Assembly: GCA_003565155.1 (NCBI GenBank)
Contig: PXDB01000027.1
Location: 1 to 64,000, forward strand
Direction: 5' to 3'
DNA: 64,000 bases
Source: Nitriliruptoraceae bacterium
GTDB lineage: Bacteria; Actinomycetota; Nitriliruptoria; Nitriliruptorales; Nitriliruptoraceae
The position numbers and the translations under genes were made by a program. Of the stretch, positions 39,359 to 50,365 are shown piece after piece (position 1 is the first letter of the stretch; each line of letters opens with the position of its first letter). The notes under the pieces were generated by a model. It saw nothing but the letters and a program-made list of their open reading frames with translations, had not been told where the DNA came from and searched no databases.

Positions 39359-41317
39359 TCAGTTGAACAGGTTGCGGAACCACTCCACGACGCGCTCGAA
39401 GAAGCCCTCGAGGTCCTCGGTGTCGAACTCCGGCACCTCCGGGAGCTCCGGGAGGCCGGGCCCCTCGCCGTTCTCGGGGTCGGGCTCCGGCTCCGGATCC
39501 GGGTCCGGGTCGGGCTCCGGCTCCGGGTCGGGCTCGGGGTCCGGTTCGGGCTCCGGCTCCGGGTCCGGTTCCGGGGCCTCCGGGCCCTCGCTGATCTCGA
39601 TGCTCACCGTCGCGCCGGGTGCCACCTCGGTGCGGGCGCCGGGATCCTGATCGACCACGATGCCGGCGGACTCGTCCGCGGGGACCCGGGAGATCAGCAC
39701 CTCGAAACCGCCGGCGTCGAGCAGCCGCAACGCATCCGACTCCTGCCTGCCGACGACCTGCGGCACCTCCACCGCCGCGTCCTCGTCCTCCTCCACGGCG
39801 AGCACGAGGTCGATCTCGTCGCCGGGGGCGACCACCACACCGGTGACCGGGTCGGAGGAGAGGACACGTCCCGCCGGGGTCTCGGCCGACGGCGAGAAAC
39901 GCACGATGCCGAGCTCGAGGCCGGCGTCCTCCAGCGCCCGTTCCGCGGGTCCGCGCCGCAGACCCACGACGTTGGGCACGACCACCTCGCCGGGTGGCGC
40001 CGCCGCGGTGAGGTCGACCTCGGTGCCGGTGCTGACCTCGCTGTCCGGCTCCTCGCTCTGCGCGAGCACCGTGCCGGGCTCGGCGTCCGACTCCTCGGTG
40101 TCCACCGCGCCGAGCTCGAGCTCCGCGGCCTCGAGCTGCTCGGTGGCGTCCTCCACGCTCGCACCGACCAGGTCGGGGACGGTGGTGGTCGGTCCACCGA
40201 ACCACCACAGCAGTACGGCCAGCAACGCCAGCACCGCCGCACCGACCCCCACCCACACCCAGGGGGACCGCTTCGTTGGCGCGAGGACGATGACGTGATC
40301 CTCCGGCACCTCGTCGGTCAGGGTCAGCTCCACCTCGGCCGCCTCGAACCCGTCGGCGGCGACCGCCAGACGGTGGGTCGCCGGCGCCTCGGCGCCGTGC
40401 TGCCGCCCGTGCCCGGGCTCCGCGGCGCGCGCAGCGGTGCTGTCCTGGCCGTGCTGGGCGATGGGCCCCACGGCGGTGGCCGCGGGCGCCGGCAACTGCG
40501 CCAGGGGGATCAGGAAACGGCCACCGGGGTCGGTGGCCGCCTGGCCGACCAGGTTCCCGTCGAGGTCGCGGAGCCGGACCTGCGCATCCAGCACCGGTTC
40601 CTCACCCTCCTCGGCGATCACCTGGCCCTGGAGCTCGGCGGGGTGGAGGTCCACCGTCAGCGGCGTGGCGAGCTCCTCCGCGCCGAGGGTGCGCCGGGCG
40701 GTGAAGTAGCCCGCGGCGGTGACCTCCAGACGGTGTGGCCCATGGCCGGCAACCTCGAGGGCGAAACGGCCGGTGCTGTCGGTCATCGTCCGGACGAGCT
40801 CGCGGCCCTCGGCGTCGAACAGCGTGACCGTGGCGTGGACCTCGTCGCCGGGTGCGGCGTCCACCGGCCGCACCGACCCGGTGCAGCGTGCGACATGCAG
40901 GTGGATCTGGACCCGGCCGCCGGGGTGGGTGTGCTCGTGCCGTTCCGTGAGCCGGCCCGTGGCGTTGACCACGATCTGGTAGGACCCGGGTTCGACCCCG
41001 GCCACGGTGAAGCGACCATCCGCCACGGTGCTCGCACGGCCCACCAGCTGGCCGTCCCGGGCGACCACCTCCACCTGGGCGGCGTCGATGGGCGCGCCGC
41101 TGTCGGCGTCGTTCACCGTGCCACGCAGCGGGGAGGGGCCCGTCGGCGCACCCGTGTCCATCGGCACCGTGGCGTCGTCAGCACCGGCCGCCCCGCCCGC
41201 GGCGCCGGCAGCCTCGGTGGGTTCGAGCCGGCGGGTCGGGTCGTCACCGCCCGGTGACGGCGGCGGCGGTGGCTGGCGGTCGCCATCCTGGGGTGGTGGC
41301 GATCCCGAGCTGCTCAT
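39359..41317 (-). CDS. Membrane protein with carboxypeptidase-regulatory-like and PASTA domains
   Basis: A 652-residue single-span protein. The N-terminal 50 residues are Pro/Gly-rich. Three Ig-like CarboxypepD_reg domains follow (about 60-140, 145-215, 220-340; e.g. LRGTVNDADSGAPIDAAQVE). A span is at about 350-372 (VWVGVGAAVLALLAVLLWWF), then three PASTA repeats (VPDLVGASVEDATEQLEAA, VPNVVGLRRGPAERALEDA, VPQVVGRQESDALRLLDAG), an Asp-Pro-Glu-Pro linker and an amphipathic end FFERVVEWFRNLFN. PASTA domains bind peptidoglycan; no kinase domain is present. GGAGG precedes ATG 41317. Confidence 0.88.
   Translation of the reverse strand: MSSSGSPPPQDGDRQPPPPPSPGGDDPTRRLEPTEAAGAAGGAAGADDATVPMDTGAPTGPSPLRGTVNDADSGAPIDAAQVEVVARDGQLVGRASTVADGRFTVAGVEPGSYQIVVNATGRLTERHEHTHPGGRVQIHLHVARCTGSVRPVDAAPGDEVHATVTLFDAEGRELVRTMTDSTGRFALEVAGHGPHRLEVTAAGYFTARRTLGAEELATPLTVDLHPAELQGQVIAEEGEEPVLDAQVRLRDLDGNLVGQAATDPGGRFLIPLAQLPAPAATAVGPIAQHGQDSTAARAAEPGHGRQHGAEAPATHRLAVAADGFEAAEVELTLTDEVPEDHVIVLAPTKRSPWVWVGVGAAVLALLAVLLWWFGGPTTTVPDLVGASVEDATEQLEAAELELGAVDTEESDAEPGTVLAQSEEPDSEVSTGTEVDLTAAAPPGEVVVPNVVGLRRGPAERALEDAGLELGIVRFSPSAETPAGRVLSSDPVTGVVVAPGDEIDLVLAVEEDEDAAVEVPQVVGRQESDALRLLDAGGFEVLISRVPADESAGIVVDQDPGARTEVAPGATVSIEISEGPEAPEPDPEPEPEPDPEPDPEPEPDPDPDPEPEPDPENGEGPGLPELPEVPEFDTEDLEGFFERVVEWFRNLFN
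39470..39580. repeat. Hexamer-rich repeat coding a Glu-Pro-Asp-Pro linker
   Basis: CTCCGG/GTCCGG units repeat within the PASTA-protein gene and encode alternating Pro with Asp or Glu, a stiff spacer. Such repeats expand and shrink easily. Confidence 0.8.
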
Positions 41318-41414
41318 CCTGGCGTCCTCCACCTCGGCCGGCGCGGGCGAAGGGCCCGGCACGCGCACCGGCAGCTTACGGCCACAGCGCTGACCGGGCC
41401 CGACCCCGGTGCGC

Positions 41415-44624: not shown

Positions 44625-44737
44625 GCCGGTGGGCCGCACCCCCGCGCCCCGGCGCCGCACCGCCGGGGCCTGCCGCATGCGGGGACGCTGCCGACGCCTG
44701 GCCCGGGACCTGCCCGTGTCACGACGAGGAGCCGGAC

Positions 44738-47700
44738 GTGTTCGAGCGCATCGCGATCGTGAACCGTGGCGAGCCGGCGATGCGCCTGATCCACACCGTC
44801 CGTGCCCTGCGGGCACCCGACGGGACCGGCCCACGGACGGTGGCCCTGCACACCGAGGCCGAGCGCACGGCGATGTTCGTGCGGGAGGCCGACCACGCGG
44901 TGCGGATCGGACCGGAACCCGGCGAGCCAGCATGGGCCCGCGCCCCCTACCTCGACCATGACGAGCTCGCCCGTGCCCTGCGTGCGGCACAGGCCGACGC
45001 CGCCTGGGTCGGGTGGGGCTTCGTGGCCGAGCACGCCGCCTTCGCCGACCGGTGCGCCGCGCTCGGGGTGACCTTCGTCGGCCCCAGCGGCGACACGATG
45101 CGCCGGCTCGGTGACAAGATCGGCGCGAAGCACCTCGCCGAGCAGGCCGGCGTCCCCGTGGCCCCGTGGAGCGGTGGCCCGGTCCACGACCTCGACACGG
45201 CCCGCTCGCACGCCGAACGCATCGGTACGCCGCTGGTGGTGAAGGCAACGGCGGGCGGTGGCGGCCGCGGCATCCGCGTCTGCCGTGACCTCGACGACCT
45301 CGACGCCGCGTTCGAGCGGGCCCGGGCAGAGGCTGGCGCCGCCTTCGGTGACGACACGGTGTTCCTCGAACTTATGCTCACCGACGCCCACCATGTCGAG
45401 GTGCAGGTACTGGCCGACGGCCGGGGCGGGGTGTGGGCGGTCGGCACACGGGACTGCTCCCTGCAGCGGCGCAACCAGAAGGTCCTGGAGGAGTCCGCCT
45501 CCACCGCACTGACCCCCGAGCAGGACGCGGAGCTGCGGACCGCCGCCGCGCAGCTGGCGCGCCTGGCCGACTACCGCGGAGCCGGGACGGTGGAGTTCCT
45601 GCACCAGCCCGGCACCGGGCTGACCACCTTCCTGGAGGTGAACACCCGTCTGCAGGTCGAGCACCCGGTCACCGAGCAGACCACGGGCCTGGACCTCGTG
45701 GAGTGGCAGTTGCGCATCGCCGCGGGTGAGCGCCTGCCCGACCAGCCACCGCCCTCCACCGGCCACGCCGTCGAGGTCCGCCTCAACGCGGAGGACGTCG
45801 AGCGCGGTTTCGCGCCGGCAGCGGGCCGGATCGAACTGCTCGACCTCCCCACGGGACCGGGGGTACGGGTCGACACCGGTGTCGCGGAGGGCGACACGAT
45901 CCCGCCGGAGTACGACTCGATGATCGCCAAGGTCATCGCCCACGGCGCCGACCGCGGCACGGCGCTCAGCCGTCTGCGGCGGGCACTGGCGCAGACCACG
46001 GTGCTGGTGGAGGGCGGCACCACCAACCGCGCCTTCCTCCTCGATCTCCTGACCGACGACGACGTGCTGGCCGGCCGGATCGACACCGGCTGGCTCGACC
46101 GACGCACCGCCGACGGGGGCTACCGATTCGCAGCCCGCACCGACGTCGCGTTGATCGCCGCCGCCATCGACGCGTACGACGACGCCTCCACCCTCGACCG
46201 GGACAGGTTCCTGCTGTCCGCTGCCCGGGGCCGGCCGCAGGTCGAACCGGAGCTTCCCCGCACCATCGACCTGCGCACGCAGGGGGTCGCGTACCGCCTC
46301 GAGGTGGCCTGCACCGGCCCGGGGCGCTACCTGGTCACCACCGACGGCGTGCGGGTCCTCGCCGAGGTGGAACAGCTCCGCCGCTTCGAGCGCCGGCTCA
46401 CGGTGGAGGGCACACGGTTCCGCGTGATCGCGATCCGGCAGGGGGCCGAGCAGCTCGTCGAGGTGGACGGTGTCCCCAGCCGGATCAGCCAGGACGACGC
46501 CGGGATGATCCGCAGCCAGAGCCCTTCCGTGGTGGTGTCGGTCAACGTCTCGGCCGGCGACGAGGTGGCCGCGGGCGCGAGCCTCGCGGTCCTCGAGAGC
46601 ATGAAGATGGAGACCGCGCTGACCGCACCCTTCGCCGGTCGGGTCGCAGAGGTCCTGACCGCCAGCAACGTCCAGCTCGACGCCGGCCAGCCGGTCCTGC
46701 GGCTCGAGCCGCTGGAGGAGGCGCAGGCCGCACCGACGGCCGCACCGGTGCGCTTCGCCGACCTCGCCCGGCACACGCCCACCGATGCTGCCGACACCGG
46801 GACGGTGCTGGACGCCCTGCGCCGCAGCATCCTCGGCTACGACCTCCACGAGGACAGCGTCGAGGAGCTGCTGACGCGTCTGCGCCCCCGGCGCGGCGAC
46901 GCGCACAGCGGCGCCGACCACGACCACGGACTGGGGAGAGGCTCGGACACCGAGGTGGCGGGTGAGGACACCACGACGCAGCGTCAGCTGGTCCGCGCCG
47001 AACTCGACGTGCTCCGCGCCCACGCCGACATCTCCGCCCTGTCCCGCAACCGCCGCCTCGGCGACGAGGAGGACCGGCGGGAGGAGCGCAGCGCCCGCGA
47101 GTACCTCCACGCCTACCTGCGAACCTTCGACGCCGACGCGCTACCAACGAGCTTCATCGACAAGCTCTCACGCGCCGTGGCGCACTACCAGGTGACGGAG
47201 CTCGACCGCAGCCCTGCGCTGGAGGACGCCCTGTTCCGGGTGCACCTGGCCCAACGCCGGGCCAACGCGCACGTGCCGGTGATCCTCACGCTGCTCGAGC
47301 GCCGGCTCCACGCCGGTCCGCCCCTGGACCCGGCGCTCGCCGAGGAGCTGCGGCACACCCTGGACCGCCTGATCACCGCGACCCAGGCCCGTCAGCCGGT
47401 GATCGGCGATCTGGCGCGGCGGGTGCGCTACCGCTGCTTCGAACGCCCACGGCTGGCGGCCGATCGCACACGGGCCTACGCCCGCGCCCGTGACCACCTG
47501 CGGGCCCTCGCGGCCCACCCGACGCGCGCTGACCGTGACGAGCGGCTCAGGGACCTGATCGACGCCCCGGAGCCACTGCTCGGCCTGCTGGAGGATCCGG
47601 CGGTCACCGGGGAGATGCTCACGCCCCTGCTGGAGGTCCTCACCCGACGCTACTACCGCACCCGAGAGGTCGAACAGGTCAGCACCGTCGACCTCGGCAG

Positions 47701-50365
47701 CTCGACAGCCGTGGTCGCTGATTTCGTCGACCCCCGGGGGCGGGGTCGGGTGATCGCCCTCGCTGCCACCGCCGACGATCTCTCGGAGTCGCTGCAGGCC
47801 ACCGCGCGGCTGGCCGGCGATCTCGACGTGGACGAGGTCGGTGCCGGGGTGGTCGCGGACGTGTACGTGACCTGGCGGGACGCGCCGACCGAGCTGGACC
47901 TGTTGGCCGCCGGCCTGGAGGCCGACCTCGACGATGCCGTGCTCCCAGCAGCGCTGCGGCGGGTGACGCTGTCGCTGACCGTCGCGCCGGGTGGTGATCC
48001 GGGTGCCCCGGAGCGCCCGTCCGTGGAGCACCTGACCTTCCGCCGCACCGCGCAGGGGTTCCGGGAACGCCGCCACCTGAGGGGCATCCACCCTCTGGTG
48101 GCCGGCCGGCTCGACCTGTGGCGCTTCGAGCGGTTCGCCCTGACCCGCCTGCCCTCCTCGGAACACGTCTACCTGTTCCACGCGCGCGCCCATGACAACC
48201 CCGAGGACGAGCGGCTGTTCGCCCTCGCCGAGGTCCGCGACCTCACCCCCGTCCGGGACGAGGCCGACCGCGTCGTGGGGCTGCCCGAACTCGAGCAGGT
48301 CCTTGCCACCGCCCTCGACGACCTGCGGCGCGCCCGGGCGATGGCCCCAGGCGGCAACGCGCCGGACTGGAACCGGGTCGTGCTGCACGTCTGGCCGACG
48401 GTCCGGGTGCCCGTGGAGGAGCTCGAGCCGGTGGTGCGCGCCGTCGCACCCACCACCGAGGGGCTCGGGCTCGAGCAGGTGGCGGTGCGGGCACGCTTCG
48501 AGCTCCCCGGGAGCGAGCCGCGCGAGGCGATGGTGCGGATGTCCCGCCCGCCGGGCCAGGGGTTCACCCTCCGGGTGACCGAGCCCCCACGCACGCCGCT
48601 GGTCAGCTTCGACGAGGTCAGCCGCCAGATCATCAAGGCCCGTCGGCGCGGCAGCGTCTACCCCTACGAGCTGGTGCCCCTGCTGACCCAGGACCGGTCC
48701 GCGCCGGGGACACCGGACGCGCCGGCGGGCACGGCACGCGGCTTCGTGGAGTACGACCTCGACGAGGACGGCCGGCTGGTCGTCGTGGACCGTCCACCGG
48801 GTCGCAACCGCGCCGGGATCGTGGTCGGCACCGTCACCACCCGAACCTCCCGCTATCCCGAGGGCATGACGCGGGTGGCGCTGTTCGGTGATCCGACCAA
48901 AGGGCTCGGCTCGATCGCCACCCGGGAGTGCGCGCTCATCAGCCAGGCCATCGACCTGGCAGAGCAGCTCCAGGCGCCCATCGAGTGGTTCGCGGTGTCC
49001 TCCGGTGCCCGCATCGCCATGGACTCCGGGACGGAGAACATGGACGGCGTGGCCCGCGTGCTGCGGCGCATCATCGAGTTCACCCAAGCCGGGGGCCAGA
49101 TCAACGTCATCGTGGCGGGGATCAACGTCGGCGCCCAGCCCTACTGGAACGCCGAGGCCACGATGCTCATGCACACCAAGGGCATCCTGGTCATGACCCC
49201 CGACTCCGCCATGGTGCTCACCGGCAAGCAGGCCCTCGACTACTCCGGTGGGGTGTCGGCGGAGGACAACTTCGGGATCGGCGGCTACGACCGTGTGATG
49301 GGCCCCAACGGCCAGGCGCAGCACTGGGCCCCGGACCTCGCCGGCGCGATCGAGGTGCTGTTCACCCACTACGAGCACAGCTACGTCGCGCCGGGCGAAC
49401 GTTTCCCCCGGCCGGCACCCACCACCGACGACCGCCACCGCGACGTCCGTGGCTACCCCCACCAGGTGGAGGGGCTCGACTTCACCACCGTCGGCGAGGT
49501 GTTCGACGAGCGCACCAACCCGGGCCGCAAGAAGCCCTTCGACATCCGCACGGTGCTGCGCGCGGTGGCGGACCTCGACCACGAGCCGCTGGAGCGCTGG
49601 CGCGACATGGCCGACGCCGAGGTGGCGGTGGTCACCGACGCCCACCTCGGCGGCTACCCCGTGACCCTGCTCGGTATCGAGTCGCGGCCACTGCCGCGCC
49701 GGGGCCCGGTCCCGGCGGACGGCCCGACGGGGTGGACCGCCGGCACGCTCTTCCCTCGGGCGTCCAAGAAGGTGGCTCGGGCGATCAACGCCGCCAGCGG
49801 CATCCGCCCGGTGGTCGTACTCGCCAACCTGTCCGGGTTCGACGGTTCGCCGGAGTCACTGCGGGAGTGGCAGCTGGAGCTCGGGGCGGAGATCGGACGG
49901 GCCATCGTCAACTTCGACGGGCCCGTGGTGTTCACCGTGATCTCGCGCTACCACGGTGGTGCCTTCGTGGTGTTCTCCACCGCGCTCAACGACCACCTCG
50001 AGGTCGCCGCACTGGAGGGTTCGCACGCGTCGGTCATCGGCGGCGCGCCAGCCGCCGCGGTGGTCTTCACCGGAGAGGTGAACCGGCGCACCGACCGAGA
50101 CGAGCGCGTCGTCGCGCTGCGCCGACGGCTCGAGCAGGCGAACGGCGCCGCGCAGGGGCAGCTGCGCGCGGAGCTGGAGCGGGTGCAGGCCGAGGTGCGC
50201 TCACGCAAGCTCGGCGAGGTGGCGGCGGAGTTCGACCGGGTCCACTCGATCGAGCGAGCGAGGGACGTCGGGTCCGTCGACCACATCGTGGCGCCCGGAC
50301 GGTTGCGCCCGTACCTGATCGACGCGGTGGAGCGGGGCATGGCAGCCGTCACCGAGCGCCCGTGA
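44738..50365 (+). CDS. Single-chain multidomain acyl-CoA carboxylase (eukaryotic-type ACC layout)
   Basis: A 1875-residue biotin enzyme adding CO2 to acetyl-CoA or another acyl-CoA. Residues 1-450 are biotin carboxylase (FERIAIVNRGEPAMRLIHTV; VVKATAGGGGRGIRVC near 167; EVNTRLQVEHPVTEQTTG near 302). The biotin carrier at 585-655 has Lys623 in ESMKMETAL. Residues about 680-1300 are a central region as in eukaryotic ACC, ending IIKARRRGSVYPYEL. The carboxyltransferase follows at 1300-1860 (SSGARIAMDSGTENMDG; LDYSGGVSAEDNFGIGGYDR; SRYHGGAFVVFSTALND). Most bacteria split these domains among subunits. GTG 44738 has GAGGAG upstream; an open-frame extension to 43751 is rejected. Substrate not settled. 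Confidence 0.92.
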   Translation: MFERIAIVNRGEPAMRLIHTVRALRAPDGTGPRTVALHTEAERTAMFVREADHAVRIGPEPGEPAWARAPYLDHDELARALRAAQADAAWVGWGFVAEHAAFADRCAALGVTFVGPSGDTMRRLGDKIGAKHLAEQAGVPVAPWSGGPVHDLDTARSHAERIGTPLVVKATAGGGGRGIRVCRDLDDLDAAFERARAEAGAAFGDDTVFLELMLTDAHHVEVQVLADGRGGVWAVGTRDCSLQRRNQKVLEESASTALTPEQDAELRTAAAQLARLADYRGAGTVEFLHQPGTGLTTFLEVNTRLQVEHPVTEQTTGLDLVEWQLRIAAGERLPDQPPPSTGHAVEVRLNAEDVERGFAPAAGRIELLDLPTGPGVRVDTGVAEGDTIPPEYDSMIAKVIAHGADRGTALSRLRRALAQTTVLVEGGTTNRAFLLDLLTDDDVLAGRIDTGWLDRRTADGGYRFAARTDVALIAAAIDAYDDASTLDRDRFLLSAARGRPQVEPELPRTIDLRTQGVAYRLEVACTGPGRYLVTTDGVRVLAEVEQLRRFERRLTVEGTRFRVIAIRQGAEQLVEVDGVPSRISQDDAGMIRSQSPSVVVSVNVSAGDEVAAGASLAVLESMKMETALTAPFAGRVAEVLTASNVQLDAGQPVLRLEPLEEAQAAPTAAPVRFADLARHTPTDAADTGTVLDALRRSILGYDLHEDSVEELLTRLRPRRGDAHSGADHDHGLGRGSDTEVAGEDTTTQRQLVRAELDVLRAHADISALSRNRRLGDEEDRREERSAREYLHAYLRTFDADALPTSFIDKLSRAVAHYQVTELDRSPALEDALFRVHLAQRRANAHVPVILTLLERRLHAGPPLDPALAEELRHTLDRLITATQARQPVIGDLARRVRYRCFERPRLAADRTRAYARARDHLRALAAHPTRADRDERLRDLIDAPEPLLGLLEDPAVTGEMLTPLLEVLTRRYYRTREVEQVSTVDLGSSTAVVADFVDPRGRGRVIALAATADDLSESLQATARLAGDLDVDEVGAGVVADVYVTWRDAPTELDLLAAGLEADLDDAVLPAALRRVTLSLTVAPGGDPGAPERPSVEHLTFRRTAQGFRERRHLRGIHPLVAGRLDLWRFERFALTRLPSSEHVYLFHARAHDNPEDERLFALAEVRDLTPVRDEADRVVGLPELEQVLATALDDLRRARAMAPGGNAPDWNRVVLHVWPTVRVPVEELEPVVRAVAPTTEGLGLEQVAVRARFELPGSEPREAMVRMSRPPGQGFTLRVTEPPRTPLVSFDEVSRQIIKARRRGSVYPYELVPLLTQDRSAPGTPDAPAGTARGFVEYDLDEDGRLVVVDRPPGRNRAGIVVGTVTTRTSRYPEGMTRVALFGDPTKGLGSIATRECALISQAIDLAEQLQAPIEWFAVSSGARIAMDSGTENMDGVARVLRRIIEFTQAGGQINVIVAGINVGAQPYWNAEATMLMHTKGILVMTPDSAMVLTGKQALDYSGGVSAEDNFGIGGYDRVMGPNGQAQHWAPDLAGAIEVLFTHYEHSYVAPGERFPRPAPTTDDRHRDVRGYPHQVEGLDFTTVGEVFDERTNPGRKKPFDIRTVLRAVADLDHEPLERWRDMADAEVAVVTDAHLGGYPVTLLGIESRPLPRRGPVPADGPTGWTAGTLFPRASKKVARAINAASGIRPVVVLANLSGFDGSPESLREWQLELGAEIGRAIVNFDGPVVFTVISRYHGGAFVVFSTALNDHLEVAALEGSHASVIGGAPAAAVVFTGEVNRRTDRDERVVALRRRLEQANGAAQGQLRAELERVQAEVRSRKLGEVAAEFDRVHSIERARDVGSVDHIVAPGRLRPYLIDAVERGMAAVTERP

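What the first reader, a model, noticed from the sequence alone, without database searches (positions are those of the whole stretch)
44738..50365. Bacterial single-chain carboxylase with a eukaryotic-type acetyl-CoA carboxylase layout
Sequence shows BC, biotin carrier (Lys623 in ESMKMETAL) and CT fused in one 1875-residue chain with a roughly 600-residue central region. That region ends in ARRRGSVYPYEL, like the (A)RxxGTTYxYD segment before CT in eukaryotic ACC. Known bacterial ACC/PCC enzymes are mostly split, and the single-chain LCC is about 1100 residues without this central part. It may be a prokaryotic relative of the eukaryotic enzyme or a convergent fusion.
Basis: partly seen in the sequence, partly recalled or inferred. 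Interest (0 to 1): 0.75.

Follow-up and report, generated by a model that had tools for sequence, protein, structure and literature searches.

The report
Bacterial fused acetyl-CoA carboxylase, eukaryote-type
The gene encodes a complete one-piece acetyl-CoA carboxylase built like the enzyme of animals and fungi, but this bacterial type was described in 2019 in another actinobacterium; the less expected thing is that sister copies have several times lost their ATP-using half while keeping the rest.

Summary
Window 44738-50365 (+) encodes an 1875-residue chain, BC - biotin carrier (Lys623) - ACC central region - CT, from a Nitriliruptoraceae (Actinomycetota) genome. The central region scores 51.8 bits against Pfam ACC_central (cut-off 23.2); its AlphaFold2 model (pLDDT 90) finds only eukaryotic ACCs as its 31 best PDB matches. 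BC and CT fall outside the ordinary carboxylase subunits of the same genome, and the BC catalytic residues checked are present. It is a true relative of eukaryotic ACC, not a convergent fusion.

It is not new. Livieri et al. 2019 (PMC6491548) characterised SACE_4237 of Saccharopolyspora erythraea: same architecture, active homodimer, carboxylates acetyl- and propionyl-CoA, essential for fatty-acid synthesis. The window protein is a new member, in a class that paper did not list.

What I could not find described lies outside the given coordinates. A 51%-identical paralogue (contig C106) has a dead BC (ATP-grasp lid deleted, catalytic residues lost) but intact biotin lysine and CT. It is conserved in nine genomes of four genera, beside a PfaA-like synthase. 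The same lid loss arose separately in two other actinobacterial lineages. Its function is unknown; BC-independent transcarboxylase or trans-fed carboxyltransferase are leads.

The parts
44726..44731 (+). Ribosome-binding-site-like GAGGAG, 6 nt before the GTG start
   Evidence: Sequence read directly
44738..50365 (+). Whole coding sequence of the fused acetyl-CoA/acyl-CoA carboxylase, 1875 aa plus stop
   Evidence: start agrees with homologues
44738..46108 (+). Biotin carboxylase (BC) domain, aa 1-457, active-site residues K127, K169, H219, K248, E286, E300, N302, R304, Q306, E308, R348 all present
   Evidence: Pfam; residue check against relatives (E. coli equivalences from memory)
46109..46507 (+). 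BT-like linker region, aa 458-590 (assignment by position only)
   Evidence: Inference from domain order; ACCA_BT scored only weakly in the paralogue
46508..46717 (+). Biotin carrier (BCCP) domain, aa 591-660, biotin acceptor Lys623 at 46604-46606 in ESMKMET
   Evidence: Pfam Biotin_lipoyl 596-656; Met-Lys of the motif kept in all 92 aligned sequences
46838..48697 (+). ACC central region, aa 701-1320, containing ARRRGSVYPYEL near its end
   Evidence: PF08326; A2 profile vs PDB; AlphaFold2 pLDDT 90 and Foldseek to yeast/human/Chaetomium ACC
48725..50362 (+). Carboxyltransferase (CT) domain, aa 1330-1875
   Evidence: PF01039; CT profile A3 best hits all eukaryotic ACC CT

Best explanation
It is the actinobacterial multidomain acetyl-CoA/acyl-CoA carboxylase (SACE_4237 type). 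The BC domain uses ATP and bicarbonate to carboxylate the biotin on Lys623, the carrier domain swings to the CT domain, and CT passes the carboxyl group to acetyl-CoA (probably also propionyl-CoA), giving malonyl-CoA (methylmalonyl-CoA). The central region is the scaffold homologous to that of eukaryotic ACC, holding BC and CT in a homodimer. Shown here: architecture, homology, fold of the central region, BC residues, clade. Inferred from the characterised relative: dimer, substrates, role in fatty-acid synthesis.
For: Domain order and significant Pfam scores including ACC_central. Central profile hits eukaryotic ACC in the PDB (E 1.8e-18) and nothing else significant; fold match TM 0.65 to yeast AC3-AC5, and the top 31 hits are all ACC. 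CT profile scores 111 bits to yeast CT against at most 38 bits to ordinary bacterial CT chains. Trees separate BC and CT of all fused enzymes from ordinary subunits (99/97 and 100/97 for BC; 100/100 for CT). All BC residues checked are conserved. Saccharopolyspora relatives are 63-65% identical in BC and 69-70% in CT, and the S. erythraea enzyme SACE_4237 is biochemically proven. No separate AccA-type subunit was found in the genome; the only PF03255 hits fall on the three CT subunits.
Against: I did not compare with the SACE_4237 sequence itself, only with congeners. The arginine of yeast LANWRGF is serine here (LANLSGF), though in every actinobacterial relative too. The genome has three ordinary BC+CT pairs, one with a PCC/ACC-like CT, so this need not be the main malonyl-CoA source. 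No activity data for this protein.
Confidence: 0.93

Rival explanations
1. Convergent fusion: ordinary actinobacterial alpha (BC-BCCP) and beta (CT) subunits fused around an unrelated linker.
For: BC alone is more similar in raw score to bacterial BC chains than to eukaryotic BC, partly because eukaryotic BC is a long branch.
Against: Central region matches ACC_central and folds like it; BC and CT of the window do not group with the ordinary subunits of its own genome; W-x-GWG in BC is shared with yeast and Chaetomium ACC, where ordinary bacterial BC has GYG, and GWG is kept in the fused relatives.
Confidence: 0.03
2. Recent transfer of an ACC gene from a eukaryote to this bacterium.
For: Shared architecture.
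Against: Very low identity to eukaryotic ACC (15-21% in structure alignments), a bacterial-only clade over many actinobacterial families and at least four classes, high-GC actinobacterial codon use.
Confidence: 0.01
3. Long-chain or another specialised acyl-CoA carboxylase rather than an acetyl/propionyl enzyme.
For: LCC is also single-chain; the genome has other carboxylases that could make malonyl-CoA; flanking genes include an acyl-CoA dehydrogenase and a TetR regulator, which are not decisive.
Against: Central region and domain order differ from LCC as described in PMC6491548; SACE_4237 had no palmitoyl-CoA activity.
Confidence: 0.05

Closest known systems
SACE_4237, multidomain acyl-CoA carboxylase of Saccharopolyspora erythraea (Livieri et al. 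2019, PMC6491548)
   Same: BC-BCCP-central-CT in one chain of about 200 kDa; CT of the group clusters with eukaryotic ACC; orthologues in many actinobacteria
   Different: Window protein is from class Nitriliruptoria, about 53-55% identical overall to Saccharopolyspora relatives; activity untested; its genome also has a dead-BC paralogue
Eukaryotic cytosolic ACC (yeast ACC1, Chaetomium, human ACC1; PDB 5csk, 5i6i, 8xkz)
   Same: Domain order, central-region fold, CT and BC homology
   Different: About 350 residues shorter than the yeast chain; identity in the central region 15-21%; LANLSGF instead of LANWRGF in CT
[quoted passage not shown]
   Same: One-chain biotin carboxylase found in actinobacteria
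   Different: LCC has CT at the amino end and BC-BCCP at the carboxy end, no ACC central region, and is a hexamer (PMC6491548)
Actinobacterial two-subunit ACC/PCC (alpha/beta type)
   Same: Related BC, BCCP and CT domains; three such pairs in this genome
   Different: Separate alpha and beta chains, no ACC central region; BC and CT branch apart

Membership tests
Actinobacterial homodimeric multidomain ACC (SACE_4237 type) | BC-BCCP-central-CT order in one chain of about 200 kDa | tested here: met
Actinobacterial homodimeric multidomain ACC (SACE_4237 type) | Central region homologous to eukaryotic ACC | tested here: met
Actinobacterial homodimeric multidomain ACC (SACE_4237 type) | BC and CT in the clade of other fused actinobacterial enzymes | tested here: met
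   congeners of S. erythraea used, not SACE_4237 itself
Actinobacterial homodimeric multidomain ACC (SACE_4237 type) | Intact BC active site and biotin lysine | tested here: met
Actinobacterial homodimeric multidomain ACC (SACE_4237 type) | Active homodimer carboxylating acetyl- and propionyl-CoA, not palmitoyl-CoA | not testable with these tools
   Known for SACE_4237 only
Eukaryotic ACC (as one family in the wide sense) | Pfam ACC_central above its gathering score | tested here: met
   51.8 bits, cut-off 23.2
Eukaryotic ACC (as one family in the wide sense) | Sister grouping of BC and CT with eukaryotic sequences | tested here: inconclusive
   Fused and eukaryotic rows lie on one side of a 100/97 (BC) and 100/100 (CT) branch from ordinary subunits, but the trees are unrooted with two fungal rows on long branches
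Single-chain LCC | CT N-terminal, BC-BCCP C-terminal, no ACC central region | tested here: not met
   description in PMC6491548
Two-subunit actinobacterial acyl-CoA carboxylase | BC-BCCP and CT on separate chains | tested here: not met

The most novel reading that the evidence does not exclude
Within this enzyme family, BC-dead fused ACCs have arisen at least three times in Actinomycetota by loss of the same ATP-grasp lid, and they work as BC-independent carboxyltransferases: either moving a carboxyl group from malonyl-CoA to another acyl-CoA (a single-chain transcarboxylase that makes special extender units for the PfaA-like synthase next to it), or taking carboxybiotin made by another BC in trans. 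This concerns the paralogue on G000:C106 and its relatives, not the window gene, whose BC is intact.
Probability: 0.45. Interest if true: 0.68.

Novelty: new member of a known kind. Interest (0 to 1): 0.42.

Why it matters
Bacterial fused ACCs bear on where the eukaryotic enzyme came from: Lombard and Moreira 2011 could not place eukaryotic ACC with confidence, and Livieri et al. 2019 proposed an actinobacterial origin. The window enzyme and its relatives in Nitriliruptoria, Thermoleophilia and Acidimicrobiia extend the family to classes not among the families that paper lists, which is useful sampling for that question. The dead-BC paralogues, if functional, would be a natural case of a carboxylase stripped of its ATP-dependent half while keeping the rest of a full-length chain, three times over.

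Tried and rejected
A third fused copy in the same genome (contig C81, 65%) was considered a true paralogue and then set aside: it is 94% identical over 873 aa to a gene of another genus (L017, G012) and no third copy shows in the four other genomes of the genus, so binning contamination or transfer is likelier. A first CT tree used wrong reading frames for the three CT subunits and was replaced. Whole-protein searches for the dead-BC paralogue failed four times for technical reasons; a DNA pattern for HDGTLQRRTEK was used instead. No promoter or terminator consensus was found around the gene. Literature searches for a BC-dead fused ACC gave nothing. Operon context for the window gene: none; the neighbours are unrelated.

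Full report
Observation. Window 44738-50365 (+) is one open reading frame of 1875 codons. Pfam finds, in order, the three parts of biotin carboxylase (2-454), a biotin carrier (596-656), ACC_central (1066-1236; 51.8 bits against a cut-off of 23.2) and the carboxyltransferase (1376-1863). The GTG start has GAGGAG six bases upstream, and homologues begin at the same place.

Where it is. The window lies in contig C51 of a draft genome of 3.5 Mb, 83% complete, 4.9% contamination. The nearest named relatives are Nitriliruptoraceae metagenome bins, the closest with 77% identity over central plus CT. Neighbouring genes are a redoxin, an iron-type alcohol dehydrogenase, a thioredoxin, a TetR regulator and an acyl-CoA dehydrogenase; nothing suggests an operon.

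The central region. A profile of 62 sequences restricted to this region finds 11 eukaryotic ACC chains in the PDB (best E 1.8e-18); the only other hit has E 0.67. An AlphaFold2 model of the window's own central region has mean pLDDT 90 and pTM 0.87. Foldseek against the PDB gives 31 matches at E <= 0.001 and all 31 are yeast, Chaetomium or human ACC; the AC3-AC5 part of yeast ACC superposes with target TM-score 0.62-0.66. Over the whole region TM is about 0.5 with high rmsd, as expected if subdomains are hinged differently; I did not test the hinge.

BC and CT. The CT profile scores eukaryotic ACC CT at 87-111 bits and the best ordinary bacterial CT chain at 38 bits. In a BC tree of 32 rows, 24 fused actinobacterial BCs form one side of a branch (99/97) and six ordinary BCs, four of them from this genome, another (100/97). 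In a CT tree of 35 rows the three CT subunits of this genome are split from all fused and eukaryotic rows (100/100). Eukaryotic rows were limited to two fungi, read piecewise from PDB alignments, sit on long branches and differ in composition; the trees are unrooted. They therefore reject membership of the window's BC and CT among the ordinary subunits, but do not by themselves root the actinobacterial-eukaryotic split. Motif evidence points the same way: BC has W-x-GWG as in yeast and Chaetomium ACC, where ordinary BC has GYG.

Is it active? All BC positions checked (K127, K169, H219, K248, E286, E300, N302, R304, Q306, E308, R348) and Lys623 are kept (equivalence to E. coli AccC residues is from memory). 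In CT, LANWRGF of yeast, whose arginine I take from memory to be Arg1954, reads LANLSGF here and (L/V)ANLSGF in all 92 aligned sequences.

What is known. Livieri et al. 2019 (PMC6491548) described SACE_4237 of Saccharopolyspora erythraea as the first bacterial multidomain ACC: about 200 kDa, central region homologous to that of eukaryotes, CT grouping with eukaryotic ACC with 100% bootstrap, active as a dimer on acetyl- and propionyl-CoA but not palmitoyl-CoA, essential and rescued by oleic acid. Full-text searches found no second paper devoted to the type. Two congeners of S. erythraea are 63-65% (BC), about 40% (central) and 69-70% (CT) identical to the window protein. The family is patchy: ACC_central passes its cut-off in 23 of 297 sampled Actinomycetota genomes and 0 of 14 control genomes (the sample includes the window's own relatives, and the profile misses divergent members, so this is a rough figure). 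Loci include Thermoleophilaceae, Solirubrobacteraceae and Acidimicrobiia, groups outside the families listed in that paper.

A related finding outside the coordinates. The same genome carries a second full-length fused protein on contig C106 (51% identity). Its BC is degenerate: the ATP-grasp profile matches only positions 95-209 (E 5e-6, against 2.2e-63 over 1-209 in the window protein), because the lid with the glycine-rich loop is absent. DKIGAK reads DPEALA, RDCSLQRRNQK reads HDGTLQRRTEK and EVNTRLQVEHPVTE reads RISVGVPLGHGITE, while ESMKME and the CT motifs are intact. An exact DNA pattern for HDGTLQRRTEK occurs in 8 of 66 genomes of the class, in four genera, and a ninth genome (G002) has other parts of the gene. 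Pairwise dN/dS of the degenerate BC is 0.15-0.38 (dS is compressed by high GC), similar to or lower than that of the central region. Its model (pLDDT only 65, 8 sequences) still matches BC structures best. It therefore looks maintained, not decaying.

This paralogue lies directly downstream of a 2,927-residue KS-AT-ACP-KR-DH synthase, overlapping it by ATGA in the window's genus, and close behind it in G010 and G016. The synthase scores 930 bits to the PfaA model TIGR02813, just under its cut-off of 1010. Two further fused proteins, in a Solirubrobacteraceae bin (L043, next to divergent FabH- and FabF-like genes judged by sequence only) and an Actinomycetales bin (L082), have lost the same lid. 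On a CT tree the dead state needs three changes; a single origin is rejected (AU p 3e-54; without L082 p 8e-6). Dead-BC proteins occur with an intact fused ACC (G000, G327, G329) and apparently without one (G010, G016, G328), the latter in drafts that may be incomplete. This argues against the sole role being a dimer partner of the intact enzyme. Mechanism is inference: CT plus biotin can in principle move a carboxyl group between acyl-CoAs without ATP, as in biotin transcarboxylases (general knowledge), or be fed by a separate BC.

Verdict. The given finding is a correct reading of a real gene and an already characterised kind of enzyme in a new host lineage. Its interest comes mainly from the question of the origin of eukaryotic ACC and from the dead-BC sisters that came up in checking it.

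Noticed in passing
G000:C106:24463-29871 (L137:13464-18872), not in the window: Paralogue of the window enzyme with a degenerate BC (ATP-grasp lid deleted, catalytic residues changed) but intact biotin motif and CT; found in nine genomes of four genera and under purifying selection.
   Followed up: partly
G000:C106:15683-24466 (L137:4684-13467): PfaA-like KS-AT-ACPs-KR-DH synthase immediately upstream of the dead-BC paralogue, with ATGA overlap in the window's genus; synteny kept in G001, G003, G004, G010 and G016.
   Followed up: partly
L043:3213-8525 and L082:2922-8447: Two other actinobacterial fused ACCs that lost the same BC lid independently; AU test rejects a single origin with the Nitriliruptoraceae clade.
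   Followed up: partly
G000:C81:1-5616 (L122): Partial third fused ACC copy with intact BC, 94% identical over 873 aa to a gene of another genus (L017); probably bin contamination or recent transfer.
   Followed up: yes
G000 contigs C102, C116, C125: Three ordinary BC and CT subunit pairs in the same genome, one with a strong PCC/ACC-type CT, so malonyl-CoA supply may be redundant.
   Followed up: no
window 39359-41368 (-): 669-aa protein with PASTA and carboxypeptidase-regulatory-like repeat domains beside an iron-containing alcohol dehydrogenase.
   Followed up: no
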